A stretch of 64,000 nt of DNA from Plectrocnemia conspersa (Eukaryota; Arthropoda; Insecta; Trichoptera; Polycentropodidae). The notes under the pieces are model-generated. The model did not search any database. It saw only the letters and a program-made list of their open reading frames with translations, and was not told the origin of the DNA. Of this stretch, positions 4,187 to 37,660 are shown piece after piece (within the stretch, counting starts at the first letter, position 1; every line of letters begins with the position of its first letter). The stretch is taken from NCBI GenBank assembly GCA_009617715.1, contig VTFK01000189.1, positions 186,001-250,000 of the forward strand. The letters are read 5' to 3'. A program made the translations under genes and the position numbers.

Positions 4187-4222
4187 ATCGTGACCTGACA
4201 GGCAAACCCAATGCGTCACGAT
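4187..4222 (-). other. LINE-A 3'-terminal RNA hairpin
   Basis: The arms ATCGTGAC (4187-4194) and GTCACGAT (4215-4222) pair perfectly over 8 bp around a 20-nt loop containing CTGACAGGC and CAATGC. The hairpin sits just before the (TAAA)n tail of the retrotransposon. The loop is nearly the same in the two SINEs at 16608-16649 and 37380-37421, while the stem bases differ in a paired manner. A role in recognition of the RNA 3' end by the reverse transcriptase is inferred from what is known of other stringent LINEs. Confidence 0.7.
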
Positions 4223-4286
4223 AGTCAAAAGTACAAATACATCATAATACATACAAATATAAACAAGACAAAACAACAGACACAAA

Positions 4287-5520
4287 TCACCTCAACAGGT
4301 GTGCATTGTCCCATACGAACTGAACCAAAACTCCATATGTGCAAGAGAAAATGTCAATATTTCTATGGACAAAATTGAGCAGATAAATAGCCTTGGCCAG
4401 AGAAGAGTTGGCAAGTGCTCCAGTTCTAGACTTAACAGGCAAGAATAGTGGACGCGACCGGGAACTATAACCACCTTCAGGAGCCCACATTTGAAGCTGC
4501 TCGAGCACTGAAGGATTGTCTACGATGCCCTTGAGCAATTTCCAGAAGTGTTTAATTACATAAACACTTCTGCGAGTCGACAAAGAAACGTATCCCAGGG
4601 CTCCCAAAATAAAAGCACTGGGAAACAAGAACGGATAATACCCGTATTCCTTCAAGTATAAATATCGAAGAAATTTACGTTGTACTTTTTCCAGCTTCAA
4701 TTCATTACATTGATTCATTACGCCTGGGATCCAAATGATGGAGCTAGTTTCTAGTATGCTGCGGACTAGAGTATCATAAAGAGTGCGCAATACTAAAGTA
4801 TTCCTGAAGTAACGCGCATTTCTCAAGATAAAACCGAGCATTTTTAAGGATTTGCTACGAGTCTCTGCAATGTGCTGGCTAAATTTCCAACGTTCTTCGA
4901 AAGTCACTCTTAAATCCTTAGTTGAAGAAAACCTTTCCATAAAATATCCGCCTAGATGGTATGAATATTTTGCCGGCGTTAATGACCTTGAAAATGAAAT
5001 TGTGCGACATTTATTTACACTGAAAGGCAATTGGTTATAGCAAGCCCATTTCCATATAGAGTTGACATCCTCCTGTAGGTCGAGGGAATCAGAAATCGAA
5101 TGCATTTTCTTGTAAATTTTCAAGTCATCTGCATATAATAAAAAATCTGAATGCTCTATTGCTGTTTCTATGTCATTAATGAACAATAAAACAACAATGG
5201 ACCCAAATTGGATCCTTGAGGTACTCCAGTAGGGTCTTATATCGTTCTGAAAAAAGAGTTATTATACTTGACGAATTGATATCTATTGGTCAAGTAATTT
5301 GAGAATCGATTTATGAGATCTTCAGAAAACCCGAAATTAGATAACTTTTTTTTACAAGTAAAGCATGGTTAACTTTATCAAATGCTTTTTCAAAATCTGT
5401 GTATATGACGTTTACTTGTACACCAGAGTCCAATGATTTTGAAACATAGTTAGACAAAACCATTAGATTAGTGACAGTGGATCGAGATTTACGGAGACCA
5501 TGTTGTTGGTCGCGAAGCAT
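4287..5520 (-). pseudogene. LINE-A reverse transcriptase, partial
   Basis: The N-terminal piece (5311-5520) has QHGLRKSRSTVTNL, then the catalytic A-motif TDFEKAFDKVNH. The B-motif GVPQGSNLGP is at 5198-5227 and is out of phase with the long downstream ORF (4287-5186, 299 aa). That ORF begins in FINDIE and has the catalytic YADD at about residues 18-21 (5124-5135). The thumb and C-terminal part follow, including LPFSVNKC and a cluster of aromatic residues (KEYGYYPFLFP) typical of these insect elements. At least two frame disruptions near 5187 and 5310, and the missing 5' half (endonuclease and RT motif 1), make it inactive. The protein would reverse-transcribe its own RNA at the genomic target site. 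The C-terminal ORF is intact for about 300 codons, so the copy is moderately young. Confidence 0.85.
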
Positions 5521-5522
5521 AC

Positions 5523-6379
5523 ACCTGCAATAAATAATAATAGATAATGATGCAAAGCATATTGTACTAATTTAAAAATAAGTAATATACTCTTAAGAAT
5601 TTTTAAATCAAAATCCTAATTGACTTTATTTTTTAACACTTATCACTTCATTTAATAGATAGCTAGAAACTACTACTTTAAAAAAAAATATGTTAATGAT
5701 AATTATAATAAAGATTTAAATCAATTCTGTTTATTAATAAATATTATTAAATCAAGCAAATACAATTCGCAAATATTTATCTGTTTATTGAAGGGTCCCC
5801 ACAATTTTGCTGTTATTATTTTTTAGAGGAATCTCCGCCATATTTCAACGCTGCATTTTTGTCGCTGCATAAATACTAAATCATATTTCAAGTCACACCT
5901 CGCTCGGGCGGATTACAATCCGGGGCTATGACGGTGGATGATGGATATTCACTTTTTGTTCATCGCCCCCCAGCTCTCGTACGTTCAGGTGGACAGGGTA
6001 GCAAACATTCCACAATCCGACCGACTCTTCTCTGCCCCAGGCAAATGGATAAATCATGTCCGTCACCTTGTCCCCGCGCCACAATCCATCTCAACCATCA
6101 ATCTGTGCCCGTTGCATATAAGATTTAAAAAAAATAGAACCAAAAATCAGCTCTTTGTTTTCTAAAATAGCACGGATAATAATTAAAAAAAAAATTGTTA
6201 TTCATTAAGCCTTTAGTTATTACATATACTACACTAATAATAGAGATACATATTTTAAAAATTAAAAAAATGGTTTAGTACACTATCGATGAACAAAGGC
6301 AATTTTCTACAATTTTGTTGTGTGTATTTTATTTAGTGGTTCCGCGTCGATAAAACAGTATACACCAACTGGATTTCGG
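5523..6379. other. Spacer with a GC-richer island at 5885-6130
   Basis: The first 350 bp are A/T-rich and featureless. From 5885 to 6130 the composition becomes balanced and two overlapping plus-strand ORFs (5928-6128, 5938-6165) appear. Neither resembles a known protein, and both start without context. This may be non-coding conserved sequence; no function can be assigned. Confidence 0.35.
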
Positions 6380-8515: not shown

Positions 8516-10921
8516 GTCAAATAGAAAAGTTTGTTTTTCTTCTTCTTCGCATGAAAATTTTCTTCGTGTTTTATTACGCTACATGGTAAACGTGTGCGTC
8601 ATGTAATAAACTCGCAAGTTTCGCTAATGTGTACATTTAGCTTGTGTGTATTAATAAATATATGAGTTTTAATATATGTACGTATAGATATTTAATGTAC
8701 ATAGTACATAATGCGTTAAAAGTTTGGCAAAAACAAGTCGACTAGTTCAGTAATGGTTTATTTTACATGCATTTTATTTTTTTAATATTTTAAAATGTAC
8801 GAACACGATGTCCTATATTGATTTTAAATATGTTTTTATATTATTATAATTTTTATATTTAGGTGTAAGTAGTATTTTTTTATTAATTTGAACCATTAAA
8901 ACAGCTATTTTTGCAATGTTACCATAACATAAATTTAACTTATTATAACACATGCATGTTTACAGATTTTGGATTAAAACGTATTTACGGGCTTAATCAC
9001 TATTAGCAAATACGTGTGAAAAATCACACAGTATTATTTATTTATTGCAAATGTTGTAGTCATAGTGCGAGAATAAATTTTATTTTTAAAACATTAAAAT
9101 ATGTTCAAAGAATAATATTATAAAATAATAGTCAAAAATATACATTGTTGAGATTACGTTTAATATTCGATAAAAATTATCAAATATGACAGATATACTG
9201 TAAATATATTTATAACAAGATGCAATGTTTAAAATAATCAACTTTCCTAATATATATGTATGTATAGATTTAATATTAAAAAAGTGAGCAATTTATATTC
9301 CATACACTACAAAACCTCCCAAAAAGACGTGTCACATCATCGCATCCATTAATCGCTCCCCTATTCTGTAGTATTTTTGTCGAATATTTGTACTGCAAAT
9401 ACATCTGGAACACTTATACTACTAATAGTCGTATATATAGACACCGCTAGTTCACGGCGCAATTTATTACTAGTTTTGGACTGCTGACAATCGTTGACAG
9501 CTCTGATCTGCCACCCCATTCGCATATTTCAATCTGCACAAAGATGAATGCTCCCGCTGATGTTCACCACCTTCGAGGTATACATTTTTTTGTTGGTCGC
9601 GATGCATGAATTTTTTATTCACACATACATTTCGAGGGGTATTTTTTTTGGGAGTAAAAAAAGTGTCGGCGGGTAGTAAGTAGTCAACCCCGCAGAAAGG
9701 CTTCCTTGCTCTCCCGTCAGTCAGCCGTAATGAAAAATGATTGCATTTCAACTTTTGCAGAAAGAAATATGAAAATTTTGGTTTGGATAAACAAACACAA
9801 CTCCCTTTCCTAACGGTCGAAGTTTTATGTATGTACATAAGTACTTGTATTCAACTATGAGTTTGATTTTTCACTTTTTCACTCATGGTTTTAATCTCTA
9901 ATTTAAATATGGTAACTTCATGGTTTCATATAAATTATAAATACATAGAAGTGGTGAAAAATATATTTTGAAGAATTTTGGACCATGTTTAAATTCTGAT
10001 GCTGTTATTTCACCGATTCTGCTAATTATATATTGTAATATATTTTTATCTATATCTAACTTTTCGACAATCCCATTCGACTACTTTCTATATTTTTGCG
10101 AAATATACGTGAATTTATAAAAATAGCAAGCAATGGCAAAAAATATGTAAAAAATAGACTACTATTTTTTTCCCCAAGACTACTGAATTTATCATGATTC
10201 ATTTAAACTCAAGGATAACTACACTTTTTAAAATTTTATTATTACTTAGAATATTTGCTTTAATTTTTATTGACATTTCTTGTTCATGCATATTTTAAAT
10301 AAGCCGAAAAAGAGTTAAGTGGTTAATATTGGTCATTTAAAAGATGAATAGAAAATAACCTTTAAAATACACTATGTCTGAAAGTTTGGCTCGTAATCAT
10401 TTTAAAGGGAACGAGTTACGTTTTTATTGATATTTCGTCTGTCTTCTTCTAAATTAAAATTTAATTTATAATGGTATTAAAATATTTATTAGTTTGTAAA
10501 AAAACAACTGAATTACAGATTAACCTTTATTTTATAAGAAAAAAAAAAAAAAAACCCGCCAAATATTTGGAAAATTAAGAAATGTAGTAACATTAAAATA
10601 TTATTATTGGGTTATTATGAAATGTAGTAAAATAAAAATAAATTTTGATTTTACAGTGAAAATGTTTACTACGAATGTTTTTGGGTGAAAAGCTATCTTG
10701 TTAAAATAAACCGTTTGTTTGATGAAATTCAATATATACGAGAGTTTAAAACTTTAGTGAAAATTTCCGGTTCGATGTCATCATTAGAGAAAAAACAATT
10801 ACTTCATAATTTTTTTTACCGGTTATCTTAAAAGGTATTTTAAGAGATTAAAAAAAAAGATTGACTGTTTTATTGTATAGATTTTTTCTTACTATAAATA
10901 AATGTCAAGAATACAAAGAGG
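8516..10921. other. AT-rich spacer with an island at 9300-9830
   Basis: Most of the stretch is A/T-rich without features, with a poly-A run at 10540-10555. Between 9300 and 9830 the composition is more even, and the minus strand stays open for 122 codons (9470-9838). That product has no family resemblance that I can see, and its codons are not those expected of a gene in so AT-rich a genome. I treat it as non-coding. Confidence 0.35.
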
Positions 10922-10924
10922 ATT

Positions 10925-11190
10925 TTGATTCTTAGCACTTTTTTGAATTCTAGGAATTGATAAATACCAGAAATTATCGTGGTTTTGAGTTTTGCACACA
11001 TACGTTTTTATTTAATGATTTTTTATATAAATTCCGAATAACGTATTTCGCGTTCATTTTTTATTATTGCTTTAAATACGTGTGAAGTTTACAGTAGAAA
11101 TTTTAATTCCTAGCACTTTTTGGAACCCTAGGAATTTATAAATACTAAAAATTTCAGTGGTTTTAAGTTTTGCACATTTTGATTTTGTAT
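10925..11190 (+). repeat. Diverged tandem duplication, 178-bp period
   Basis: The stretch beginning TAGCACTTTTTTGAATTC at 10933 recurs at 11111 as TAGCACTTTTTGGAACCC. The two copies stay aligned at a constant 178-bp offset to the shared GTTTTGCACA at 10989 and 11167, with scattered substitutions. Both contain CTAGGAATT and a GTGGTTTT segment. No coding function is seen. Confidence 0.7.
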
Positions 11191-12429
11191 TTAAAGATTT
11201 TAATTTTATTATTTTTTTTTATTGTTTTAAACACGAGGATTTCTTAGCTTTTTGAAAATATTTAAACAAGAAAACTTCTTCATATATTATCAAAAATTTT
11301 TGGAATAGCTGTCTTCTATAACATTCTTCAAACATTGCTGTAAAAAAACACCGACGTTTTACAACAACTCGGATATGAACAAGATAATAATTGTGAAAAA
11401 TTATGGGATATTCGAAGAAAATTACCACAGACTCCTGAGAAATGAATTAGTTATTAATTCAAAGTTTACATTTAGTCAACTATTTAATACAATAGTTGAT
11501 CGTTTATATAAGCAAATTAAATCTTGATTTTCTTCAATGTGCAAATTGGAATATTTTCACCTAAATAAGCGCAATATAAAGAAAACTTTCCAAATGAATT
11601 AATCAATACACTAAAAAAATTCTATGAAACATTATACAATTATTGTTCACGAGCTTGCTATTCTATATTCATGCTCTGATTTTTTTAATTTTTAAAATAG
11701 TAGAGTCTTTAAAATTTGATTTATGCATTTTTTCAATAAATCTACAATTTGGTATGCTGAGAAAATATTACCATAATAAATTACTTTAAACAGACTAAAA
11801 ATCAAACATTATATAAAAATCGCACTCTGCAAAAATGGCACTTTGGTAACATTGACGTAACGGCGGCGAAGGGCAGCACATTTTTTGGGTGACTGCGACG
11901 GGAGTTTGACGACCGGCGGCGCCTCACTCGTCGATCTGTGTCTAATTACCACCAGTCACTAACCATCCGGTAAAAGTTGTTATAGTCATGGTAATAAATA
12001 ACAAAAAGATTTAAAGACAAATTTCTAAAAATATCGAAAAAAACATGATTACATGCACTGTTGTAATACACAAAGGACAACCTTGCTTTTAGTGTTTTTA
12101 GAAATATAAAATTTCAAAATATTATACTACAGATAGAATCGAAACGAATAATTGGATATATATTCGAATAACGAGTAATTAAAGAACGTGCAAATAAAAT
12201 CGGTATTCGAATATCTGAGTTTCTAATCACTAGTATACAACAGTTTTTATTGCATTCAAAGAATATCCTTTTAACGTTAAATTATATTTTATTTAAAAAC
12301 TGCATATTTTTTAAGTGTATCTTAAATCCATAGCACACATCTTGCAAGCATACTTTTTTAAATTATTTGTAAAAGAAATATATACATATATTAATTATAT
12401 TTATATTAAAAAAAACTAGAGATTGTTTA
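11191..12429. other. AT-rich spacer
   Basis: No gene. A short GC-rich patch at 11865-11960 (GGCGGCGAAGGGCAGC) has no interpretable ORF. Confidence 0.45.
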
Positions 12430-12960
12430 CCCATTTTAGCACTCACTCGAGCCTAATCTCCGTGGAATGATTAGGGTGTTATTATTTCGCAAATATGCCC
12501 ACGTCAGGATTAGTGCTAGGGTTTTCGGACGCGTTATGCGTAGGCAGATCGCTTGATTAACACACGCGCGGAAAAAGAGGAAAGAGCCCCCGGGGCTGTC
12601 ACATTGTGAGGGGGTTCGGGATAATGGACAAGAGACCTCCCCGGGGGATGGAGGTGCATTCAAATTAGATTTGCTGCGGGTACTGTGAAGTGTGTCCCTT
12701 CGCGTAAACCTCAAACGAGAGTAAGCCCGCACACACCCTAAACGAGATACCTACCGCTAAAAAAAGTATATATGTGTATGTATATACACAGAAATTACCA
12801 TCTGCACGATGGCGGTAGGTTTGAGGATGTGGCGAATGTCAATCTGGGTGAGTTTTTGGTTGAATTAATAAGGTAGAAGGCAAAGTTGAGCAGTCGGAGC
12901 CTCTTGGATGGATGTGGGGACGTGATTTGTGATTACGGTTGTTTTGAATTATTAAGCGAG
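12430..12960. promoter_or_regulatory. GC-richer island, candidate cis-regulatory sequence
   Basis: The island contains several K50-homeodomain-like cores (CTAATC at 12452, GATTAG at 12469, GGATTAG at 12507, GGATAATGG at 12619) and a CCCCGGGG run. The minus-strand 98-aa ORF across it (12436-12732) is low in hydrophobic residues and unrecognised, so it is probably not a gene. The regulatory role is inferred only from motif clustering in an otherwise A/T-rich desert. Confidence 0.2.
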
Positions 12961-15900
12961 TTGCAAAAGATGTCTTGAAAGCTAGTTTAATTCAATTATA
13001 AGAGATGAAATGCAGAAATGGTAAAAACAGAGAAGGATTCACTATTTAATGCGAAAAATTGAAAACATTATGCATTCATTTCGGCAAAAAGGGAAATTCT
13101 AAAACCCTTATCAAATCAAAATATGGTAATTATATTATTATTACTCTAAAAAGTCGCGTCAGAATTCACGTGGTATTTTTGTTATATTATTTATAATAAA
13201 AATTTATTTTATAACAAAATAAATGTGCTGTGGATAATACTTTTTTTAGTGAATTAATTAAAAACACAATACACACATGGTATTTTTAAACACATGAAAA
13301 AAAGTATTCTGTTTTAAGGAATTTGTACAAGAAATATGGTCTATGTAATATATTTGAAGTTATAATAACAAATATGTAAGAAAATCAAGGGCAGAAGCAA
13401 TTTCTACCCTTAGTTCTAAAGTTAAATTACAAGCCGTCTCGTAAAAATGAATTAAAGTGACCAGAAATAGGGTAAGTATTGCATTAAATTCTGTAGAAGA
13501 ATGCAATCGGCACGACGTCTATGAAAAAAAACAATTATTATATGAGCTTAAGATTTGGAAGAGATGCTGGCAAAAAAAAAAAATTTTGTTAACTTGTATT
13601 TTGGAAATAGAAAACAATATTGTTTCAAACTACGTTTATTTATACTAAATTAAATATATTAAAAGCAATAATTTTTTTCGCAGAAGACCAGGAGTAAATA
13701 AACAACGTGATTTTTATTCTTATCGTAAAGGGTACAATAATACATCTCGATCATTTTCATTTAAAAAGTACCAAAAATAGAACATATCAATGATTGATTA
13801 TTAAATATCAACACATTATTTTATGAAGTATTTTCTTCAAATAAAATATTAATAAAAAAACAATATTCTAAACACGTCTGAAGATATGTATAATTCAATT
13901 ATTTTTGCTATATATATTACAATACATATGTATACAGTTAGTATAAAGGTTATTTCAACCTTTTTATATGTATTCAAATAAAATTGGGGTAACATCTGTG
14001 CTTCAAGTATCATAAGCTTATAAATTGAAAGCCAATTCTAGGCCATTATTTCCTCTCTTATACGAATATACGTACAGGCAAAATATTATATCTTATTAAT
14101 TTTTTTTTTTTTTATTAAAGTGACTTTTTATCACCATTTTTTTAACTAAATGTCCGACTTCTCAGATACTGACACAAAGGGTTCCGAATTTATTTGTATT
14201 TTTTAAATATTTATTTATACAGTGTAATTAATCGATAAAGCAATTTTAAAGTTCAGAACTTGAGATACGATCCTGTCGCATCTTATACGTTAAAAGCGTC
14301 ATAAACCAAATGTATATTTGTAATGCCGACTAGTGCAGACCGTACGTGGCAATAGAAGGATTAGTTTATAGCATTTCTCCAACGAACGTTCAATGCCTTC
14401 ATACACGCAAAAATAAAAGTATTACGTTGGCAAGCAAGTTGAATGCGAAACGACAATTGCGAGGTAGCCGAATCTTCAGCATCTAACAGTCAACATAAGC
14501 AATATGTTCCATTAAGAAAATATATGTTTATTGATTTCTACGATACATATATAAAATTCAAAATAAATTAAATATGACTACTATTATGGTAAATGCGGCA
14601 TAATATAATTCATTAGTCACAATTAATTTAATTTGAATAAGGTCAGTTTAGGTCTTTGATTTAAATAAATAATACAAATACATTTTGCAATAATCGGGTT
14701 ATAAAGGACTTATTTATATAGTTGAATAATTAATTAAGTTTTATTAACTTTTGGGAAGCGTAGGATTGAAACGAAGAAGCAACAGGCGATATGCTCGAGG
14801 CAGACAATAATTTAAATGCTAATAGCGCGACGAACTTCAATCATTTTATAAAGAGATCTCGTGCTTCTAAAAATATCCATAATAATGAGTTATGTAAATA
14901 ATAAAGAAGTACAGTAAAACGCTTTAAATTATTATTTTTATTATCTAAATGACGTTTTTTATGTTATTACTAATAAAGCAAACGTATTAGGGCGACATGC
15001 ATTACGTATTCCAAAATATGATTAAACATCAATACGATGTATTTTGAAGCATGATCGATTCGGACACGCGTTCGTTATGCAAATGAACCAAAAGTTCAAT
15101 AATCCTGATTTGTGAAGCTTGAGAACGAAACATGTGGACAAATATTGTTTGTTGGTGATGACACGCCTCATGATGGATTAAATTATACCGATTTCATTGT
15201 TATGGAAAAACTATTGTTTTATGTTATTGTTGAACAACTTTATATTTAATATATATTCAGATATAAAGACCTAAGCAATTTGTGTTATAAAATTAAAATA
15301 GACGTATCAATTCTTAATCTTGCCAAAATAAGCTGCTGAATTTTGTTTGTGAACAGGCAAAATAAAATAATTGTATTGTGAATTTTAATTACAAAGAAAA
15401 AAAAATACAAAAATAATATATTATTGGAAACAGTGCGTGTTTGGTGACATATATGAGTTTGGAAACAATAAAATTATTATTGTTCATGCAAGTTTATGAG
15501 GACTTGTTGAATAATAAATATAGGGATGTTTGCTTTTGTGTATAAAAGGCAGCTTTTAGATTTATAAATCTGAATTTGTCATATTGACATGATCGATCTA
15601 TATCTGAATAAAGCAATGCGAATGTAATGAAAATAATAAAGAATATACGATACACCGGAATAAAGGATCTCCTACAGATTTTTTACTTTTTCATGACAGT
15701 TATCCTACTTTTGAATTTATTGTGCGAATGGTTCCGATGCATAAATAATATATTTTCTAATGTTAAACTTAATTATGTTATATAAAATTAATATGTTAAA
15801 CCAAATTTAACTTTAATAAATATTTTTAGCAGAGCAATTTATATAAAAATTATAAATAAATGATTTCTTGCGGTTTTATTTCTGCCGAATTTTTAATATT

Positions 15901-16329
15901 TTTTTTTCTTTCATAATATATTTATATGTAGGCACGTTAAGCCATTTTCAAATTATAATTATTATCATAATTCAGTATATAAATTCACATTGCAATTTTT
16001 TAAAGCACAAGATCGAGAAAAATATTGTTTAACTCGTTTTAATATCGAATAAAATATATATGCAAATAAATCACTGATTAAAACTGTAAAACAATTTTAC
16101 TATCAACGTTTATTTACATTCTAGATAATCTAAGTTGAACTTCATGAATACTTAATTAACGTCACTTATTAAAGTACTATATTGTTAAATGTTTTTAGTA
16201 AAAAAAAACAGAACCATAATTAAATTTATAGTGGTTAAAGCTGTTTGATCTATGCTGTTTTTTAGAGATAATATTGTCTTTTATTATTTTATATTTATTT
16301 ATTGTATATAAAAATATATTTAGAAATCA
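12961..16329. other. Long AT-rich gene-free stretch
   Basis: No recognisable coding sequence. A poly-T run lies at about 14099-14114. A slightly GC-richer patch at 14270-14480 and one at 14990-15190 hold nothing identifiable; the latter includes a POU octamer, ATGCAAAT (15077-15084). The ORF at 13457-13648 is A-rich and not credible. Confidence 0.5.
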
Positions 16330-16400
16330 TTTTACATTTTAATGAAATCATATTGAAATACATTTTTACCAGTAGATAAATTTCTACAAATGAAAAATAA
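16330..16400 (+). repeat. Fragment of the TTTCACTAGTGAAA dispersed repeat
   Basis: A short segment runs from TGAAATCATATTGAAATACA to a CCAGTAGATAAATTTCTAC. It aligns with the parts of the copies at 17150-17500, 57690-57840 and 63420-63655 that read AAT-ACATTTT-CACC-GTAGATAT-TTTCTA. Partial copy only. Confidence 0.45.
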
Positions 16401-16597
16401 CAGCGTTTTGGAAAATATCAGAGATTTTTTTAACATTTATTAAAAAAGTGTAATATGGAACTATTAATTAAAGGTCAAATAAATTTTAAGTTATCCACAA
16501 TACTTTAAAGTAGTAATCTAAAGACATGTTTATGTCATTTTATATTCAAGGTGCTTAGTATGTAAAAGTGTTAATTGGAATTTTATTTTTTTTTTTT

Positions 16598-16915
16598 ATT
16601 AAATATTCCGTTGTAGCCTGACAGGCGAAAGCACAATGCGTTACAACGGGATAAATCTATACGTAGCAAATGATTAAGTCAATCAAATAAAATTAATACC
16701 TATAGGTATTAACCATCAGAATTAACGTCTGGAAATCGTCGACATCTATATATTATAAATAATTATGAATTATTATGTGTATCATAATTAATAACTATTT
16801 TTTTATAATAGCGTATTTTTTATACATAAAAAATCGAGTGCCACTGCCAGGGCTCGAACCTGCAACCTCAGAGTTACTAGTCTGAGACGTTACGGACTAC
16901 GTTATTCCGTTCTTA
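16598..16915 (-). mobile_element. SINE with tRNA-like head and LINE-type tail, copy 1
   Basis: Reading the minus strand, the element starts with a tRNA-like head: an anticodon arm CTCAGA / TCTGAG around CTAGTAAC, the core of tRNA-Thr(AGT), then the B-box-like GGTTCGAGCCC. A body of about 190 bp follows, then the hairpin at 16608-16649 and a T-rich tail on the plus strand. The body and tail match 37365-37660. The 5' part of the head (acceptor and D arms) is degraded. The tail hairpin has the loop of the LINE-A hairpin at 4187-4222, suggesting mobilisation by a LINE-A relative. It has no coding capacity. Confidence 0.65.
16608..16649 (-). other. SINE 3' hairpin
   Basis: The arms CCGTTGTA (16608-16615) and TACAACGG (16642-16649) pair perfectly; the next inward pair is G-T. 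The loop has CCTGACAGGC and CAATGCGT, as in LINE-A. Compared with LINE-A, three stem positions differ by compensatory changes on both arms. Confidence 0.7.
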
Positions 16916-17129
16916 TTTTTATACAATTATAATATGTTTAAAAATAGTTTATTTTTATAAATAAGTGACTTTTTTATTAAGAAATAGTTTTTAATGAAAA
17001 ATTTTTTTAAAAAATACATCAAAAATTATTGTACATTTTTCTGTACATCTCTAATTTTTTTTTATATCGAATCAGTATAAAGCACCGCTAAAAATGTTTA
17101 AATTTAAGTGATTTTATGAGTTTCTCATA

Positions 17130-17510
17130 CCTGACATTCGCTCTAATTTTTCACTGGGTATTTTGGTTCGATTTTTTTCACTGATATTTTAGTAAAATTA
17201 TATCAGAATACATTTACACTGGTTGATATATTTCTACCAGTATATAGAAAATTTAATTCACCTGCTAGGTGCTAGTGAAATTTATGCTATTCTAAATTTT
17301 CACCTGTCAATTTAAAGCAATATATAATTTTAATAATTAAAAAAGTCAAGTAAATGGTGGTCTTTAACTGAAAGTCGTATTATCCTTTACGTTATCAGCG
17401 AAGTTCGTTTAAAAAAATAGTTATTGTCACAATGTAAATACATTTTTATACCAGGAAAAAATATAACTTTACTGAAAAATACACATTCACTGTAGCAATT
17501 GCAAAATGTC
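17130..17510 (+). repeat. AT-rich dispersed repeat, interrupted copy
   Basis: 17150-17320 contains the CACTG-GTTGATATATTTCTA segment and GTGAAATTTATGCTATTCTA, both shared with the copy at 63420-63655. 17455-17500 holds the terminal part ACTGAAAAATACACATTCAC. The two blocks are separated by unrelated sequence, so this is either one interrupted copy or two partial copies. Confidence 0.45.
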
Positions 17511-20354
17511 CATTTAATGTTGAAATCCCAAGCTAACCAATAACTTATTAAAAGTTTTAAGCTAACTATATTTTGGTACGCTACTTTATTATTAAAAATA
17601 TATATTGCAAAATATAAATTAGTATAAGAAATATATTTTTGTTCAAACTCCACACAAAAATAAATTTAGTATTTTTATGCAAAATGTTAGATTTGGTTCT
17701 GTATTGACGTTTATAATCTGTTGTTCAAATACGTTTTTTTGCATAAATGTTTGTTATAGTAAATCTTGCCATTTTTATTGCAAGTAAATATTAACAATTA
17801 ATCAAGTCAAGAGCTTAAATATGATTAAGAATATACATTTGTATATTATTAAAAATCAGTGCATAAATTGACATATATTTTTTTTTATAAAAAAACATAA
17901 ATTGTAATCTAAGCAAAATAAAATATATAAAGCCTTAAAAAAATATATAATTTCTTTAACACAATGACGTGTTATGTAAAATAAAATAATAATAGGTATA
18001 GACTAAAGCAAAAGTTTGAAATAGGTAACACATTTAACCTAAATTTCTTATATTCAGATCAATGACATCTAAACATCTAAACATGATACTATATTATATT
18101 AAGATAGCAATAAAATAAATATTTGATCTATGTCTATTTTTGTCGCTTATTTATATGTACATACATATATACCGAAAATGTATAAAAATAAATAATAAAT
18201 TATTAGCAATAAAAAAAATGGCGAATTGAGATTTATATTTTCCTTTTACGTCATAATATTTCCAGAATCGGTAAAAAATCGAAAAGATATATCCGTGATA
18301 AGTTTGAACAGGGCCGTTTATACCTAAACGCCCGTCGGCTATTTGATGTAGGACGAAATTAGGGAAGTTTTCCGTTTGCCAATATTTGTACAAGGTTTGG
18401 GATTCGGCGCCCGAAAACGTTTTTGTTAACGATTCCGTCCACAAAACGACGAAACACAATGTCGAGAGAGAATCTTTTCCAAAAATAGAAAAAAGTAAAA
18501 TATACCATATTTTCAATATTTAAATCTTCTATCAAATAATCGCCTTCGTTCAATTTTTAATTCGTCGCTAAAGCGAATTCGGCGAGTTTCTCAAAGGCCG
18601 AATCGGATTACGATAAAAACTTTCGTTCAACACAAAGCCTGTATCGTTTGACACGCGATACGTTTTGAAAGTTTTCCAAATTAATTACTTAAAACGTTAA
18701 CTTTGTTTCCAGATTACGTTCTAGAGCACCTGTGCGTATTTATATAATATTTACAACGCGGATAATTTCGATAATAAATTTTATATGGCTGAACTTTCCT
18801 CGAGCGGCTAAATCTTCAAAGTGATAATTCTGAACGATTTTAGTGTTAATTGATAACGCTACTGTATAAAACGACGAAAAAATAAGACTGTAATTAATAA
18901 CCAACGGTAAAAACAGGGATTAACAGGGATGAACATTAAATTTTAATATTTTGCAATCTTATAATTTATATAGCTTAATATAAAAGGCAACATCTTTAGA
19001 CATTATTACATAAAAGCTCAAGTATCTGGTTGCTTCTTGACAACCAGTAGTAATACTTTTTCTTTTATCTAAAAAATCAATTAAATTAGAATATATAGAT
19101 TCGTTTTAAAGATCGGTTTCAGAAAAACCATTACCACTCAGCATTGATAAATTCCATATTTTTTTGTTCTTCAAAATCTAATATATTTTTCCTAGGAGTT
19201 CTCAAGAACATATAAGCTTCAAATGCATTTTTGGCAGCAGTTTAGTTGTTAAAGACTGCTAAAATATAATATCTGGTATATATTTTAGAGCTCATTGTAG
19301 TGAAAGAGAATTGGACCGTTTCAATTGCCCAGTACGGAAACAAGATGTCACAATTTTTGTTTTCTTGACAATAATTATCATAAATTACAGGATTTTAGAT
19401 CAAGCAAAGATCACCAAATATTGTAATTTTGCGAAATGATAAGGTTAAGACTTTTTATGATCTACTTTTTATCTCACGTTACAATACAATCGAAAAATGA
19501 TTTGTCTACTAAGTAATAGAAGCGTAAAATAAACCATATTTTATGTGGCACCCATTTGTTTAGCTCATTAAATTAATTAAACTGTTTTTAATGGTATATA
19601 ATTTTTGTTTTTTTGGCGGACGGATTTTAATGTGTGAAAATTACACACAGGCCGCTGCAGATTATTTACTAAAATTTAGTATACAGTTTAGTTACATGTT
19701 GAATCGATGTGAATGATATGAGAGATCGTCGGAAGAGGTTCCGCCGGTCGTCGAGGCCCGCAAAATAATATGTTGCCGCTTAGTTTCGGCTATAATGATA
19801 AATAAATAGACTCCTACAATTTATTATCGCCTGTGTATTTTTTTATATAAAAGTTAAATGCTTTATAATTGTTTTTTGTTTTCATGTTCAATAGGAAGCC
19901 ATAAAAACACCACAAAAGTGGTATTTTTTTTTTATCAATAACCAATGTTTTTAAAACGAAACCTTATAATAATAAAACAATGACTGATTGGTAACATACA
20001 ATAAATAATATTTTCAATATAAAAATTCATACAATAAGAACCATATTTTTTCTCAATTGCAGACACATCGTTACTCCACAAACAACACATCAAGTACATA
20101 AATCTGTTTCCCCTTTTCGACATTCCGAACACATTTTCCTCATCAAATGTCTTTTCGGAGTCGTTTTACCAACAGCGTGTCGACCACCTTTTCCTCTATT
20201 GCGGCCAAAAGTCATGTCGTTGGACTAATGTGACAGCAGCACCGCCTATTTCGCCTATTTGTATAAATTTAGATTATTCCGAACAACTTACCAAACCAGA
20301 TATACTGTATTGGGCTATATATATTGAATTAAGAGATTATTTTAGACCTAGAAA
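17511..20354. other. Spacer with GC-richer islands at 18230-18780, 19690-19800 and 20140-20270
   Basis: The minus-strand ORF at 18151-18516 (121 aa) lies over the first island. It is rich in aromatic and hydrophobic residues, but I recognise no domain and see no splice context. The other islands have no ORF worth naming. The remainder is A/T-rich. Confidence 0.4.
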
Positions 20355-22873
20355 TATATTTATTATTATTTTATTAATTTATTTAGCTTAATAGCTAATC
20401 TTTACATCTAACAAATTTAGTAAACAAATATAAAAATATATAAAAAATACATAACAGAAATAAAAAATAAAAATATACAATAATAAAGTCTTAATATTAT
20501 AATTTATTTCTATATGTACGAAGGTGTTTTTTTATTCCATTTATGAAACCCGTTATATTTTTTTTCTGTTTCGGATTTCTCTTGGAAGACTATTATATAA
20601 ATCAAAACCTCCGTACATAATTCCCCTAGCCGTACTCGTTTTCTTATACTTAATTATCTTTAAATTTTCTCTATTTCTAGTATTATATTTATGTACATCT
20701 TTATTTCTTATTAAATACTTATAAAAATATTTTGGTAACATATTATTTTCTAACTTATATATAAATACTAAAACATTCATACTCAATATTTCTTGAACAT
20801 TCAACCATTCTAATCTATCAATCATACTTTTACAATTAGTTAATCTATTTTTATTTAAGATTACTCTCATTGCCCTATTTTGTAATTTTTTGCAACATTT
20901 GTTTATCTAATTTATTTAACATATTTAACAGTGTTGCACAATAATTAAAATGGGGCAATATTATACTATTATAAATTTTTTTTTTTGTATTTATACTTAA
21001 TATATTTCTTAATCTAGATAATAAACCTATTTTTCTACTAATTTTTTTAATATGTAATTACAATGTTCTTTAAAATTTAATTTTGTATCAACAATTACTC
21101 CTAAATATTTTATATTATCCACTATTTCTATACTAGAGTTATTTATTACTATTTTGGTACTATTATCTAACACATTTTTATAATTAATAAACATACATTT
21201 AGTTTTATTCTCATTTAATTTAAGTACATTATTCTTGAACCATATTTCTAATATACTTAATTCATTATTTAAATTATTTACAATTTCTTTAATGTTATCA
21301 CCTATGCAATACATTAATGTGTCATCCGCAAATAGATGAATTTTACATTTTTTCACGTTATTAACTATATCATTATTACACAAAACAAATAACAATGGTC
21401 CCAATTTAGACCCTTGTGGTACTCCATAAGACACTAATTTCTCTTCAGAATATACATTATTTATTTTAACTTTTTGTTTTCTTTTATATAAGTAATTATT
21501 AAACCATCTTAAAACTATATCACTTATACCTATACTCCAATTTCTTTTAACATTATTTTTCTGTCTATTGTTTCGAAGGCTCTCTTGAAATCCAAGAAAA
21601 CTGCTCCAATGATTTTGTTTGTATCCTTAGCCAACAGCCAATCATTTATCACTACTTGTAATGCAGTTTCAGTGGAATGCTTTTCTCTGAATCCCGATTG
21701 TTGTTCACATATTATGTTTTGAGAAGTAATAAATTCCTTTAATTGTTTGATTACTACTTCTTCTATTATTTTTTCTATACACGGTAGCATGTTTATTGGT
21801 CTCATTTCTTCAACTTTTTTACTATTTTTTATTTTAGGTATAGGTACAATAGTAGCAATCTTTAAATTTTCAGGCATTTCTCCTAAGGAGAGTGATTTAT
21901 TTATTAAATAATTTAATTTAGTTCCTATTATTTCCCATGTTTCTTTAATTATATTTATATCTAGTTCATCAGTACTAGTTCCTTTTTTTAAATTTACATA
22001 TTATGTTATGAATTTCATCTAATGATACTGATTTAAATTTACTAAATTTTACAATTATTGCTTTATTATTATATTGTACTAAATTACTAATCATTGGTAT
22101 TGAATTCACAATTTCTTCTATGCTCTCAATGTAATATGTATTCATTTTTTCTGCTATTATATAAGGATCTTGATATATATTTCCATTAATTTCCATTTTT
22201 ATTATGTCGTTTTTCTGAGTTGGATTAATTGATTGTTTTATTGATTTCCACATCTTATTTGGATCATTTTGTATTTCATCTATCAATTTTTCATACCATT
22301 CCTTTTTAGCCATTCTTAATACTTTGACTGCCATATTTCTACATTGTGTGTATGTTTTCCATTTTTCATTAAAGACTTTATATTCTATTTGTTCTGTTTT
22401 TAATATTTGAAAAATTTTGTATGACTCATCTCTTTTCTTTATAGCATTTTTAACATCATCATTAAACCACGGTTTTGGGTTGTAACGATATTCCTTTTTA
22501 AAATTATATTGACTTTTTGTTTTACAATCTACTATATTCTTATAAATTTTGTTCCATATCATGTTAACATCCTTATTATCTACATTCCAGTCAGATTTTT
22601 GTAATTCTAATCTTAAATTATTAAAATTAATTTTTTTAATTATATCAATTTTTTTAATTATATCAATTTTTTTTGTTTTTTTAACCTTAAGTTCATTATG
22701 TTTTTCTATATAAATATATACAATAGAATGGTCAGTTATTCTTGGAGTTGATTTTACTTTACAATAAATTATTTTGTTGTTGGTAAATACTAAATCTATT
22801 AATGTGCTCGATCTATTATTTGTCCTTGTATTTTCTTTGACACAAATATGTTGATCAATATTGAAAAACATTC
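20355..22873 (-). mobile_element. Non-LTR retrotransposon LINE-B, copy 1 (longest)
   Basis: About 2.5 kb on the minus strand: the end of the endonuclease domain, the reverse transcriptase and the C-terminal domain, then a 3' UTR ending in a TAAA/TTATT-type tail near 20355. The 5' end is truncated inside the endonuclease near 22873. The coding sequence is extremely AT-rich. Copies 2 (35421-36660) and 3 (53705-54781) are very similar, implying recent amplification. A diverged relative starts at 63870. Confidence 0.85.
20553..22871 (-). pseudogene. LINE-B endonuclease/reverse transcriptase, frameshifted
   Basis: In order on the minus strand: 21975-22871 has the C-terminal endonuclease signature (TLIDLVFTN, then ITDHS) and a basic linker. 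21530-21877 has RT motifs 1-A (MRPINMLPCIEKIIE, QSGFREKHSTETAL, FLDFKRAFETID). 21027-21434 has GVPQGSKLGPLLF and the catalytic FADD (about 21321-21332). 20553-20870 is the C-terminal region with HKYNTRNRENL and YNSLPREIR. The frame changes between pieces, so this copy is dead. An 18-bp tandem repeat (KIDII twice) lies in the linker near 22640-22670. EN plus RT without RNase H fits APE-type non-LTR elements such as the CR1/Jockey group; the exact clade is not resolved. Confidence 0.85.
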
Positions 22874-28956: not shown

Positions 28957-30219
28957 TAGGAAAAGCGGAAAGTAATGATACATTTTTAAAGGGACGATTT
29001 TAAAATTAGTTTGCCACCGGCTGTCGTCGAGTTAATACGTAAGATTTGATCTTATTTTGTAGCTCTGTTAGTCTACTTTTGTTAATACTCAGAAGGTTTT
29101 TTTTACCATATAGAAAAAAATGTCAAGGCCAGAAATCGAGGAGACCCATTTGCGTTATTATATGCTATTTTTGTTCGATCAAGGAAAGAAAGCAAAAGAA
29201 GCCACTCAGATCATCTTTGAAATTTATGGAGACGTATTGCATTTTCAAAAATGTCACAGGTGGCTTAGAAAATTTAAAAGTGGTGATAGGGGCTTAAAAA
29301 TGCTCCCAAATCGGGAAAACCTACAAAATTAGACGATGTCGTGTTAAAATCAGCAGTGGAAGCGGATCCCCGAAAAAACCAGCAAAGAATTGTCAGAGGA
29401 GCTTGGCTGCCATTGGACGACCGTTAAAGACCATCTCAAGCGCATTGGAAAAAAAACACAGGCAAGGAATTTGGGTACCGCACGAACTTTCACAAACGGC
29501 CATTGAGCAGCGAATTACCATCTGTTCGTCGCTATTGTCTAGGCATGAAACGGCATAATTTCTGAAAAGGATCGTTACAAGCGATGAGAAGTGGATCCCA
29601 TACAACAATCCAAAGAAAAAAATCAATGGCTTTCTAAAAACAAAGTACCCATACCTACCCCTAAACCCTCATTGACCTTAAAAAATGTCCTTCTTTGTGT
29701 TTGGTGGGACATGATTGGCGTCATTCATTACGAGTTATTAAAACTTGGTCAAACAAGTACCGCAGAGGTATACTGTGGTCAATTAGTTAGAATGAAAGCG
29801 GAGCTGTTGAAAAAACGTTCAGTTTTGGTCAACAATCAAAGGCGAATTTTGCAGCATGACAATGCCAGATCACACGCGGCACGGATCACGCAGAAAAAAA
29901 TCAGGGAGCTTGATTTTGAAGTTTTACAGCATCCCTCATATTCCCCCGATATCGCACCCTCTGACTACCATCTTTTCAGACCTTTAGAGCATACCCTTAA
30001 AAATAAAAATTTGAATTCATTTGACAGTATCGAAAATCACATTGAATCATTCTTTAACGAAAAACCTGCAGATTTCTATAAGAAAGGGATTGAAAAGCTG
30101 CCTGATCGCGGAGAAAAGTAATAGAAAACAATGGAAATTATTTTACTTATTAAAATTGTATATATTTTTTTTTTAATAATTTTTTTGTATGTGAAAATCA
30201 TTACTTTCCGCTTTTCCTA
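28957..30219 (+). mobile_element. mariner-family DNA transposon, complete but dead
   Basis: The terminal inverted repeats are 21 bp and perfect, at 28959-28979 and 30197-30217, starting GGAAAAGCGGAAAGTAATGA. They are flanked by the TA target duplication (28957-28958 and 30218-30219). The element is 1,259 bp between the TAs, the usual mariner size. The internal transposase is on the plus strand and is broken by frameshifts. Intact ends mean it could still have been moved by a transposase supplied in trans. Confidence 0.95.
29120..30146 (+). pseudogene. mariner transposase (DD34D), frameshifted
   Basis: The N-terminal piece (29120-29332) is the paired helix-turn-helix region (LFDQGKKAKEA, then WLRKFKSGD). 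The frame then shifts repeatedly through the LDD and WVPHEL motifs (about 29325-29500) and the first catalytic Asp in TSDEKW (about 29580). The C-terminal ORF (29591-30121) has VWWDMIGVIHYELL, the second Asp in HDNARSH and the third in SPDIAPSDYHLF. Exactly 34 residues separate these two Asp, which defines the DD34D class. A last shift near 30108 moves the natural C-terminus, which would end near 30146, out of frame. The intact protein would cut and paste the element at TA sites in the nucleus. Confidence 0.93.
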
Positions 30220-32590: not shown

Positions 32591-32618
32591 CCCGAGCAGA
32601 ACATCTGCGCGTAAGTGC

Positions 32619-32849: not shown

Positions 32850-32894
32850 ACACATATGACCACGTTAGAAAGGGTCAAACGTGGTCATCTGTGT
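32850..32894. repeat. Inverted repeat with 17-bp arms
   Basis: ACACATATGACCACGTT (32850-32866) pairs with AACGTGGTCATCTGTGT (32878-32894), with one mismatch and an 11-nt loop. Confidence 0.8.
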
Positions 32895-32939
32895 CTGCCG
32901 TCTCAAACCCTAAACTCGTGTTAATGACTGTGACCAAAA

Positions 32940-33362: not shown

Positions 33363-33640
33363 CTACAAATCTTTTTTTTTTTAAATATGTCACAGTTTGA
33401 ACAAACAAATTTACAATTTTCTACACACTCCTTTCTCATTCTTTTGGATAATTGTAACTGACAAAAAATAATGAGTAATCTATTTTATTAAAATAAATTG
33501 CCGAGTGTTGCACTGACGGCTATTATAAAAATTAAGGAGGCTTCCAGAAACGGTCAATCAATGACGATCTTGTTTTAAATTTATTGTTACTGTAGGGTCT
33601 TATTTACTGGATAGCTCGCGTTAATGGCCGCGACCAAGGA
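33363..33640. other. Spacer between copies A and B of repeat R
   Basis: A poly-T run at 33373 is followed by A/T-rich sequence; no gene is seen. GAAACGGTCA near 33549 echoes the arm of the inverted repeat at 33029. Confidence 0.4.
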
Positions 33641-34255: not shown

Positions 34256-35420
34256 TAGAAAACGTTAAATTCCAAAACAAAAAATATTTGTGCCCGTGTT
34301 TTAGAAAATATTTTTTTTTAATTATTAAAAGTGCTTTAATTAAAATAATTTGTAATTAAAATATTAAATATATAATATTAAAACAATATTTTCTGGGGTA
34401 TTCGAATGCTTTGGATTTTCTAATCAATAAGCATGATGAATAATGCAAGCGGTACTCTGGATTATTTTTTCAGTCAAATACCGGTATTGACAATTCCGGT
34501 ATTATTGAAATCCCTATGCATAACGTCACAGTGGAATATGAAGCAATAGAAGCACGACATACGGTCATATTTCATAACTTATTAACTCGACGTTTGGCCT
34601 TTTGTAATATATAGTATCGGCAGCGGGCCGGATTTGGCTCGCGAGCTGTAGATTTTTCAGCTGAAAACGAGACGAATTAGTGTAAGAAAGCTAGTTGAAT
34701 TTAAAATAAAGAAGGATAATTGAAATATAACCAGAAATATAATTAATAAAATCCACTTAAGGTATCAAATTAGATCTTGGTTCTGGCATAGGCATTTATT
34801 ATGGTGAGTAAAATAAACTCAACATATCCAAATATAAAATCTGAACAGGAACTATATGATTTGAGTTATTGAGTTTAAGATTTTGAATAATAATAATACG
34901 TCGACATCAAAAAATCTGAAGCACGATCTGTGTTATGTTTTAATTCGCATTTCCTGGCTAAAAGCTCTCTCTGCTGCATTGTGTGCCACCGATTATAAAT
35001 CAAAGCTTTTCTTTTCCTCCGCTGTAGCCACACAGAGTTATTAATCAATTCTTGCTTTTGGCGCCCGTTTCCGCATTCGGATATAAATATTACGCCGTCG
35101 ACATTGCTCATAATTTCCGTCCGCCCGTTATTAACGCTCTTGCTTAATTGGTATTTGAAAACAGCGGATCCGCTACACGGCTTTTGCTCGCTTGGCTTTA
35201 TGATCAAACGTGAGAACTGATGTATAAAATAAATAGGAGGTTATATCGAAAAGTTCCAAGAATAAGGGTTAAATACATTCTCTATTAATCAAACGCGAAA
35301 GATGAAGCGATCATAGCGTTAATAGTACATATGTATGTAAAAAGCAATTATTTGTTTCCAGAATGACGCTAGATCATTCAGTGTCACGTGAAATTAAACA
35401 TAAAGTAAAACAGCATATCA
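34256..35420. other. Spacer with a GC-richer island at 34880-35230
   Basis: 34256-34870 is A/T-rich with a small GC patch at 34615-34690. The island at 34880-35230 is open on the minus strand for 110 codons (34875-35207); the product is unrecognised. TTTATGATCAAACG (35197-35210) combines Caudal-like and TCF-like cores. Treated as non-coding. Confidence 0.35.
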
Positions 35421-36660
35421 ATAGAGAGCCTTCGAAACAATAGACAGAAAAATAATGTTAAAGAAATTGTAGAGTATAGGTATAAGTGATATAGTTTTAA
35501 GATGGTTTAATAATTACTTATATAAAAGAAAACAAAAAGTTAAAATAAATAATGTATATTCTGAAGAGAAATTAGTGTCTTATGGAGTACCACAAAGGTC
35601 TAAATTAGGACCATTGTTATTTGTTTTGTATATTAATGATATAGTTAATACCGTAAAAAAATGTAAAATTCATCTATTTGCGGATGACACATTAATGTAT
35701 TGCATAGGTGATAACATTAAAGAAATTGTAAATAATTTAAATAATGAATTAAGTATATTATAAATATGGTTAAAGAATAATGTACTTAAATTAAATGAGA
35801 ATAAAACTAAATGTATGTTTATTAATTATAAAAATGTGTTAGATAATAGTACCAAAATAGTAATAAACAACTCTAGTATAGAAATAGTGGATAATATAAA
35901 ATATTTAGGAGTAATTGTTGATACAAAATTAAATTTTAAAGAACATTGTAATTACATATTAAAAAAAATTAGTAGAAAAATAGGTTTATTATCTAGATTA
36001 AGAAATATATTAAGTATAAATACAAAAAAAATAATTTACAATAGTATAAAATTGCCCCATTTTAATTATTGTGCAACACTATTAAATATGTTAAATAAAT
36101 TAGATAAACAAATGTTGCAAAAATTACAAAATAGGGCAATAAGAGTAATCTTAAATAAAAATAGATTAACTAATTGTAAAAGTATGATTGATAGATTAGA
36201 ATGGTTCAATGTTCAAGAAATATTGAGTATGAATGTTTTAGTATTTATATATAAGTTAGAAAATAATATGTTACCAGAATATTTTAATAAGTATTTAATA
36301 AGAAATAAAGATGTACATAAATATAATACTAGAAATAGAGAAAATTTAAAGATAATTAAGTATAAGAAAACGAGTACGGCTAGGGGAATTATGTACGGAG
36401 GTTTTGATTTATATAATAGTCTTCAAGAGAAACCGAAACAGCAAAAAATATAACGGGTTTCATAAATGGAATAAAAAAACACCTTCGTACATATAGAAAT
36501 AAATTATAATATTAAGACTTTATTATTGTATATTTTTATTTTTTCTTTCTGTTATGTATTTTTTATATATTTTTATATATGTTTACTAAATTTGTTAGAT
36601 GTAAAGATTAGCTATTAAGCTAAATAAATTAATAAAATAAATAAAATAAATAATAAATTA
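35421..36660 (+). mobile_element. LINE-B copy 2
   Basis: Plus-strand copy, 5'-truncated at AGAGAGCCTTCGAAAC (35422), inside RT motif A. It runs to a TAAA-repeat tail near 36630-36660. It is strongly similar to copies 1 and 3 along its whole length. No clear target duplication was found. Confidence 0.88.
35575..36453 (+). pseudogene. LINE-B reverse transcriptase, copy 2
   Basis: ORF 35575-35763 has the B-motif as GVPQRSKLGP (Arg where copy 1 has Gly) and the catalytic FADD (35677-35688). It stops at a TAA that replaces a Glu codon of copy 1. ORF 35815-36453 (212 aa) continues through IKYLGVIVDTKLNFKEH and the C-terminal domain HKYNTRNREN. It ends early after YNSLQEKPKQQ, where a one-base change of phase destroys the conserved SLPREIR. 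The premature stop, the B-motif substitution and the frameshift mark it as inactive. Confidence 0.85.
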
Positions 36661-37364
36661 CAGTCTGGCTCAGTTAAATAAGGATTGAATTTATACGCAC
36701 ATCAAATCAAATAAACTATTATAAAAAGTATTTTCTTAAATTTCAATAATTTTATCTCAATATTTCACAGCACGTTTGAAAAGCTCTAAAAATCTGACTT
36801 GAAGCTTTTTAATAAGCGGGTTAAGAATGCTGCAACCTACGCCTTTTCCCACTCTAACCACCAAAGGGGTGCTTTTATTTCAATTCCTACTATCTACTTG
36901 CAAAATTCGATTAGGCCGCGACAGTCATCCTGCGAGAGCAACAAGAGTCCTCGAAGCTCTCCTCCTCCCTTTACTTACACTTATCGGGCGCGGAAAATGG
37001 GATTGGTCACGGAAAAAGACTTTGCCCTATAATTGAAACCTTTATAGGGTTTTACGGCCAGATTAAGCCGCTGCGACAGTTCTGCTGGGGAAAGGTGTTG
37101 TTCCCGACTCCGAAGGGGATGGAAATCGGAGCTTTAGGAAGACGTTTTGTTAAAAAGGGAGATTTTACCTTCATTCTGTGCGTGTATGTCGCTGTGTTTG
37201 CATTATTTTTATTAGGGTACTTTTTAAATTTCCCAAGAAAACATTGTCGTGAAAAAACGATAGCATCCTTTTATTATTTTTAAAAAAGCTTTAAAATCTT
37301 TTAGGCTAATTAGTAATTTAAAAATATTTTTTGTAAGCGTAATCTTAAGTATATTTAATTTTAT
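36661..37364. other. Island 36780-37200 of balanced composition
   Basis: Two plus-strand ORFs (36799-37032, 36827-37036) and a third (37095-37283) overlap here, and none is recognised. Motifs include CTTTATAGGG and TTTTACGGCC (37040-37062), which look like posterior Hox/Caudal sites, and AACCACCAAA (36855). This is a candidate regulatory island, inferred from composition and motifs only. Confidence 0.25.
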
Positions 37365-37660
37365 TTTTTATTAAATCTTTCGTTGTAAGCTAATAGGCGT
37401 AAGCCCAATGTGTTACAACGGGGTAAATCTGTACTAACTAAATAAGGCAATCAAATATAATATATACCTATAAGTATTAATCACCAGATTTAAAGTCTGG
37501 GAATCAGTGACATTTATATTAATAATTATAAATTATTATGTGTAATATAATTGGTTCTATTGTGCCGCAATTTATGATAAAAACACATAAGTTATTGAAT
37601 TATTCCCATTTCTTTCACTTGACCTACACCTGGAACCTCTGTCACTGCCCATGCAGATGA
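37365..37660 (-). mobile_element. SINE with LINE-type tail, copy 2
   Basis: From the tail inward it matches the SINE at 16598-16915: hairpin, then TAAATCTGTACTAACTAAAT, TATACCTATAAGTATTAATC and AATTATTATGTGTAA on the plus strand. At the same distance as in copy 1, the minus strand reads GAGGTTCCAGGT, a decayed form of the head segment GAGGTTGCAGGT. The rest of the tRNA-like head is not recognisable. Confidence 0.55.
37380..37421 (-). other. SINE 3' hairpin, copy 2
   Basis: CGTTGTAA (37381-37388) pairs with TTACAACG (37413-37420), with an additional T-G pair outside. The loop has lost the CTGACAG of the other two copies (CTAATAGGC) but keeps CCCAATG. Confidence 0.65.

What the first reader, a model, noticed from the sequence alone, without database searches (positions are those of the whole stretch)
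4187..37421. Covarying 3' hairpin shared by a LINE and two SINEs
Hairpins at 4187-4222 (LINE-A), 16608-16649 and 37380-37421 (SINE copies) have nearly the same loop (CCTGACAGGC and CAATGCG in the first two), while the stems differ. Aligned from the loop, three stem positions have changed on both arms so that pairing is kept (G-C to A-T, C-G to T-A, A-T to G-C). Paired change in unlinked copies indicates selection on RNA structure, as expected of a 3' signal read by the LINE reverse transcriptase. Such tail sharing is established for other LINE/SINE pairs; this pair I cannot match to a described one.
Basis: partly seen in the sequence, partly recalled or inferred. Interest (0 to 1): 0.75.

Follow-up and report, generated by a model that had tools for sequence, protein, structure and literature searches.

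The report
Shared 3' hairpin of LINEs and SINEs
Two related families of self-copying elements and a short parasitic element in this genome, probably an insect's, end in the same RNA hairpin, whose stem letters change in matching pairs while its inner letters stay fixed, so it is probably the handle by which the copying enzyme grips its RNA; the arrangement is known from other animals and plants, but this pair seems new.

Summary
The three hairpins are at the stated places (sense strand is minus), and three stem pairs differ on both sides between LINE-A and the SINEs. The window alone was weak evidence: both SINE copies share one state, so it is one contrast, all transitions. The genome (393 Mb) adds much. 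The SINE is a real family (40 of 40 scored of 3,111 candidates match). LINE-A is young and abundant (40 scored of 1,695 candidates, 98% identity or more). The hairpin is in 30 of 30 SINE and 30 of 30 LINE-A copies fetched. A second LINE family (55% amino-acid identity to LINE-A) carries it in 18 of 20 tails read, with its own compensated pair. Between the two LINEs third codon positions are 41% identical, the hairpin 33 of 40. All ten outer pairs form in all three family consensuses. LINE-A and SINE are alike only over the last ~66 nt. Best reading: a stringent-type 3' tail, inner part read by sequence and outer stem by shape, which a SINE with a tRNA-like head shares with LINEs. The kind is known; this pair is a new member as far as my searches reach.

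The parts
4141..5521 (-). LINE-A copy, 5' truncated (boundaries approximate)
   Evidence: Same 3' part in 40 of 40 scored genome places at 98-100%; candidate target-site duplication TTACAGGTG at 4132-4140 and TTGCAGGTG at 5522-5530, 8 of 9 letters, which chance could also give.
4287..5258 (-). LINE-A open frame, end of reverse transcriptase and C-terminal part
   Evidence: RVT_1 below the gathering score (22.5 against 29.6 bits, E 1e-4); 95% identical to P0001; longer relatives bear endonuclease and RT domains (P0098, precomputed Pfam).
4185..4224 (-). LINE-A 3' hairpin: 10 bp outer stem, 4x4 internal loop GCAT/TCAG, inner stem, loop TTTG
   Evidence: found in 30 of 30 fetched LINE-A loci.
4141..4184 (-). 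LINE-A terminal A-rich tail after the hairpin, TTTTAATAAATAAATAAA
   Evidence: Sequence; TTTAATAAA is also next to the SINE hairpins.
16582..16912 (-). SINE1, whole element (5' end from the family consensus, approximate)
   Evidence: 40 of 40 scored genome places match over 308-346 bp at 75-100% (the 100% one is the window itself); consensus.
16846..16904 (-). SINE1 tRNA-like head, with box B-like GGTTCGAGCC at 16850-16859
   Evidence: Rfam tRNA 17.8 bits, below the gathering score of 29, E 0.23; ARAGORN finds it only with relaxed settings, not by default; four other SINE loci give no tRNA match at E up to 1.
16608..16649 (-). SINE1 3' hairpin (one private A.C mismatch in the outer stem)
37354..37552 (-). 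SINE2, copy without the head
   Evidence: 79% identical to SINE1 over 208 columns, not beyond.
37380..37421 (-). SINE2 3' hairpin (two private mismatches in the outer stem)

Best explanation
The hairpin is the 3' recognition tail of a stringent-type LINE lineage, present in LINE-A and in a second family (LINE2), and borne also by a SINE with a tRNA-like head. Inferred mechanism: the LINE protein binds the hairpin next to the A-rich end of the RNA and starts target-primed reverse transcription there. The internal loop (GCAU / UYAG) and the inner stem with its U.G and G.U pairs are read by sequence; the outer 10-bp stem is needed as a helix and may change letters if both arms change. The SINE is copied because it shares this end. 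Shown here: position, orientation, sharing limited to the last ~66 nt, presence in nearly all copies read, family-level compensation, constraint on the hairpin between the two LINEs. Inferred: binding, priming, trans-mobilisation.
For: Hairpin in 30 of 30 SINE and 30 of 30 LINE-A loci, 12 of 12 further LINE loci, 18 of 20 LINE2 tails, 4 of 4 and 6 of 6. All ten outer pairs form in the three family consensuses; two-sided changes: LINE-A/SINE 3 pairs, LINE-A/LINE2 1, LINE2/SINE 4; chance that no pair breaks 0.0009, 0.018, 0.0005 for random substitutions. Among the first 100 listed of 1,099 genome matches to a LINE-type pattern with three pairs left free, the 83 with the LINE2 loop have pair 14-39 as G-C 58, A-T 20, G.T 2, broken 3; 78 of 83 Watson-Crick against 49 expected when partners are shuffled, 0 of 20,000 shuffles as high. 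On 61 distinct hairpins covariation is 0.333 against 0.233 for shuffles (0 of 500) and at most 0.106 for slid structures. LINE-A and LINE2: amino acids 107 of 194 identical, third codon positions 41%, hairpin 33 of 40, P 9e-8, while the 3' UTR upstream of it is no more alike than shuffles. LINE-A/SINE: stem 7 of 20 letters differ, inner 16 letters 0 (Fisher 0.011; LINE2/SINE 8 of 20 and 1 of 16, 0.026). LINE-A upstream of the hairpin is not like the SINE. In zebrafish L2 LINEs stems can be swapped, loops not (PMC4176376, passages).
Against: With transitions only, the family contrasts are not significant (0.07, 0.22, 0.05), and the number of independent two-sided changes is small, about four. 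In one search two of five measures do not beat shuffles (pairs with two-sided change 7 against 6.3; further pair types 23 against 22.6), the alignment was fitted to the structure, and the input left out 8 LINE-A loci and the two LINE2 tails with deletions. LINE-A/LINE2 do not show more change in stem than inside (3 of 20, 1 of 16, P 0.61). Four of ten older LINE-A copies have pair 11-42 broken, three by the same change. The SINE hairpin is only slightly more conserved among copies than the body (0.933, median window 0.913). No LINE with the SINE-type stem was found. LINE-A/LINE2 RNA binding is untested.
Confidence: 0.85

Rival explanations
1. The SINE tail descends from an old LINE tail but the hairpin has no present role; the likeness is ancestry, and every copy keeps its 3' end because reverse transcription starts there.
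For: 3' ends are kept in any target-primed copy; transition-only nulls are not rejected; decay in dead copies is unconstrained.
Against: Between LINE-A and LINE2 the hairpin is 33 of 40 identical while third codon positions are 41% and the UTR beside it is at shuffle level; a pair within LINE2 occurs in two compensated states with few intermediates.
Confidence: 0.08
2. The hairpin is conserved for another job in the element RNA, such as 3' end formation (AATAAA follows it), stability, or avoiding small-RNA silencing, and not for binding by the LINE protein.
For: TTTAATAAA lies just after it in LINE-A and SINE; no binding data.
Against: The SINE looks like a polymerase III unit and the LINE must be an mRNA, so a shared need is most simply the shared copying enzyme; LINE2 has TTTAATC in that place.
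Confidence: 0.06
3. The short element is not a SINE but a deleted LINE relative with an unrelated 5' part.
For: tRNA models score weakly or not at all.
Against: Hundreds of bp repeated from end to end in 40 of 40 scored places, head with box A- and box B-like motifs (motif consensus recalled), no LINE sequence above the hairpin.
Confidence: 0.03

Closest known systems
Eel UnaL2/UnaSINE and zebrafish ZfL2-1/ZfL2-2 (L2 clade), stringent 3' tail
   Same: A 3' stem-loop next to a terminal repeat; SINE and LINE share it; in ZfL2 the loop is read specifically and the stem can be exchanged (PMC4176376, passages).
   Different: Other clade and animal; here a 10-bp stem, a 4x4 internal loop and an inner stem; no experiment; A-rich (TAAA)n tail.
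Grass L1 (LINE1-1_ZM) and ZmSINE2/SINE2_SBi
   Same: About 50 nt shared, hairpin with compensatory changes in the stem and conserved letters in the loop (PMC3747384, passages, and section 21 part 1).
   Different: L1 clade, plants, tail of T.
Moth pairs HaRTE1 with HaSE1/HaSE3, and PxLINE1 with PxSE5
   Same: Insect SINEs with a LINE tail (PMC3272025 and PMC8010984, passages).
   Different: The words stem and hairpin do not occur in these texts; terminal repeats TGA and ATGT there, TAAA here; partner of HaSE1 is RTE-type.
Mosquito Gecko SINE with I-clade LINEs
   Same: tRNA-headed insect SINE with LINE tail; the one protostome entry of the 2013 table.
   Different: I clade.

Membership tests
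Stringent-type LINE/SINE pair with a common 3' tail | SINE and LINE 3' ends are homologous and nothing else is | tested here: met
   Alignment over ~66 columns, score 48 against at most 37 in 500 shuffles for SINE1; SINE2 not above shuffles (30 against 41); LINE upstream part against SINE below the 95% shuffle level.
Stringent-type LINE/SINE pair with a common 3' tail | A stem-loop in the tail, stem variable with pairing kept, loop conserved | tested here: met
   transition-only nulls not rejected.
Stringent-type LINE/SINE pair with a common 3' tail | Tail needed for retrotransposition and bound by ORF2 protein | not testable with these tools
   Needs bench work.
tRNA-derived SINE | Repeated short element with a polymerase III-type tRNA head | tested here: inconclusive
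   Repeat family met; box B-like motif; Rfam tRNA 17.8 bits below the cut-off of 29; none in four other loci; no default ARAGORN hit.
APE-type LINE of the CR1/Jockey group | Endonuclease plus reverse transcriptase, placed in a clade by a tree | tested here: inconclusive
   Relatives with PF03372 and PF00078; LINE-A copy holds only part of the RT; one 32% hit is named jockey (P0044); no tree with reference clades was made. Clade placing is recalled, not tested.

The most novel reading that the evidence does not exclude
One hairpin code serves several elements of this genome: two LINE families with different stems, the SINE, and perhaps further SINE-like families with the SINE-type stem (L047, L058, L032). 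The SINE-type stem is not found on any LINE read here, so the SINE would live, or have lived, on LINEs whose outer stem differs from its own: recognition that ignores outer-stem letters and reads only the inner part.
Probability: 0.3. Interest if true: 0.55.

Novelty: new member of a known kind. Interest (0 to 1): 0.42.

Why it matters
It gives, in one probably insect genome, three to five families with natural stem swaps around a fixed inner part. That is the comparison made by hand in zebrafish L2, here done by evolution, and it makes loop-versus-stem recognition testable in a lineage for which I found no described hairpin. It would add a LINE/SINE pair to a group in which a 2013 table lists one protostome case.

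Tried and rejected
Tried without gain: motif scans of viral and bacterial collections (0 hits; 19; 11; chance); RT searches of viral contigs (none). Rfam on the whole window: no match. PDB search finds L1 ORF2, R2 and group II or retron RTs only, no clade. A third LINE family with the SINE-type stem: queries P0098, P0003, P0006, P0008 and P0020 gave, where tails were read, only LINE-A and LINE2; only 48, 108, 84, 92 and 96 of 9,210-18,378 candidates were scored, so one may exist. Loci first taken for a third family (L127-L132) proved to be LINE-A and LINE2. Target-site duplications of the SINE copies: none convincing. LINE-B hits gave no species name. P0005 and P0016 as genome queries did not complete.

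Rejected: that the two SINE copies are independent witnesses; that the + strand is the RNA (G.U pairs of LINE-A exist on minus only, though SINE1 + folds better).
Full report
What is there. On the minus strand the window holds a 5'-truncated LINE copy (LINE-A, about 4141-5521) and two copies of a short repeat (SINE1 16582-16912, SINE2 37354-37552). Each ends in a hairpin followed by an A-rich tail. Hairpins: 4185-4224, 16608-16649, 37380-37421. A covariance model of the three finds only these three as strong sense matches in 64 kb (59.6-68.3 bits; the next match away from these sites is 10.7 bits).

Random-substitution P values are 0.003 and 0.013, transition-only 0.05 and 0.14. On the RNA strand SINE1 has one broken outer pair and SINE2 two. 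SINE1 folds better on the plus strand (z -4.9 against -2.3).

The genome. The window is part of a 392.9-Mb assembly of 959 contigs. SINE1 finds 3,111 first-look candidates; the 40 scored all match, the 39 other than itself at 75-81%. LINE-A's 3' end finds 1,695 candidates; the 40 scored are 98-100% identical, with two more pieces at 77% and 66% that belong to a second LINE lying tail to tail with one copy (L066). So LINE-A spread recently, the SINE earlier. I fetched 30 places of each. The hairpin is in 30 of 30 SINE and 30 of 30 LINE-A loci.

A second LINE family. The neighbour in L066 and similar copies are 55% identical to LINE-A (107 of 194 residues) and 58-79% to protein P0003. Searching with P0003 gave 108 scored places of 18,378 candidates; of 20 tails read, 18 carry the hairpin and two have deletions inside it (L116, L122). 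Twelve loci from a full-length relative's search all carry it, as do 4 of 4 and 6 of 6 further tails.

Family hairpins, sense, outer stem | internal loop | inner stem and loop | internal loop | outer stem. LINE-A: CTATCGTGAC|GCAT|TGGG-TTTG-CCTG|TCAG|GTCACGATGG. LINE2: CCATCGTGGC|GCAT|TGGG-GTAA-CCTG|TTAG|GCCACGATGG. SINE: CCGTTGTAAC|GCAT|TGGGC-TTAC-GCCTG|TCAG|GTTACAACGG. All ten outer pairs form in all three. Pairs changed on both sides: three between LINE-A and SINE, one between LINE-A and LINE2, four between LINE2 and SINE. The chance that random substitutions would leave no pair broken is 0.0009, 0.018 and 0.0005; with transitions only 0.07, 0.22 and 0.05. The event count is small, and this is the main weakness.

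Compensation inside a family. A 34-letter LINE-type pattern that leaves three pairs free has 1,099 matches in the genome and 0 for the reversed pattern. Of the 100 listed, 83 have the LINE2 loop; their pair 14-39 is G-C 58, A-T 20, G.T 2, other 3. When partners are shuffled 49 Watson-Crick pairs are expected; 78 are seen, and none of 20,000 shuffles is as high. This ignores relatedness: it may be one double change in one subfamily. For the SINE type 344 matches exist; in the part listed I saw, by eye, 11 departures at the two free pairs, none two-sided.

Larger alignment. 88 hairpins, 61 distinct: 91.5% of cells paired, covariation 0.333 against 0.233 in shuffles (0 of 500) and at most 0.106 for slid structures. 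Two other measures equal the shuffles (7 pairs against 6.3; 23 types against 22.6). The input omitted 8 fetched LINE-A loci and the two deleted LINE2 tails, and the alignment was fitted to the model.

Constraint. LINE-A and LINE2 third codon positions are 41% identical; the hairpin is 33 of 40 (P 9e-8 if sites behaved like third positions). The UTR between stop and hairpin aligns no better than shuffles (42 of 54, shuffles 60-80%). Between LINE-A and SINE, 7 of 20 outer-stem letters differ and 0 of 16 inner letters (tetraloop left out; P 0.011); LINE2 and SINE 8 and 1 (0.026); LINE-A and LINE2 3 and 1 (0.61).

Decay. Single copies decay freely: SINE 385 of 450 cells as consensus, 41 broken, 1 compensated on both sides; LINE-A 444 of 450, 2 broken. 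Of ten LINE-A hairpins from another search four have pair 11-42 broken, three by the same letter. The SINE hairpin is not much better kept than the SINE body.

What the SINE is. Its 5' part has a box B-like motif and, in the consensus, a box A-like one (motif consensus recalled), but tRNA models score weakly (17.8 bits, E 0.23) or not at all. I call it tRNA-like. Likeness to LINE-A is confined to the last ~66 columns.

Mechanism. Best reading: the LINE protein holds the RNA by this hairpin and starts reverse transcription in the A-rich end beside it; the inner part is read by letter, the outer stem by shape. In zebrafish L2 a stem swap was tolerated (about half the rate in one direction), a loop swap was not (PMC4176376, passages). 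Shared tails with compensatory stem changes are described for grass L1 and SINEs (PMC3747384). Binding and mobilisation here are inferred.

Novelty. The kind is known. I found no description of this pair; these cover open-licence PMC papers only, and Repbase was not searched.

Noticed in passing
window 20354-22871 (-), 35423-36653 (+), 53716-54783 (-), 63803-63998: A second, unrelated LINE (LINE-B); three copies are about 97% alike and end in their own small hairpin TTAGCTATTAAGCTAA before an A-rich tail.
   Followed up: partly
L047:1926-1975, L058:2062-2112, L032:2057-2106: Hairpins of the SINE type at the end of sequences unlike the SINE body; L047 and L058 are alike above the hairpin too (71-74%), so further SINE-like families may use the same tail.
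   Followed up: partly
window 1766-3397: An element with 19-bp inverted ends GGCCGGAACAACGTTGTAA, CAACGTTG six times near its ends, and open frames 2222-2641 and 2966-3289; looks like a DNA transposon.
   Followed up: partly
window 29588-30121 (+): Transposase_1 (mariner-like) fragment.
   Followed up: no
window 40839-41179 and 57181-57526: Two long near-palindromes, 88% alike, each about 90% its own reverse complement.
   Followed up: no
SINE consensus: The body of the SINE folds into several further hairpins, among them CCAGACTTTCAGTCTGG and a long AT-rich one beginning GACATCTAT; their role is unknown.
   Followed up: no
L086:2082-2131: A SINE 3' fragment lies right behind a LINE-A tail.
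   Followed up: no
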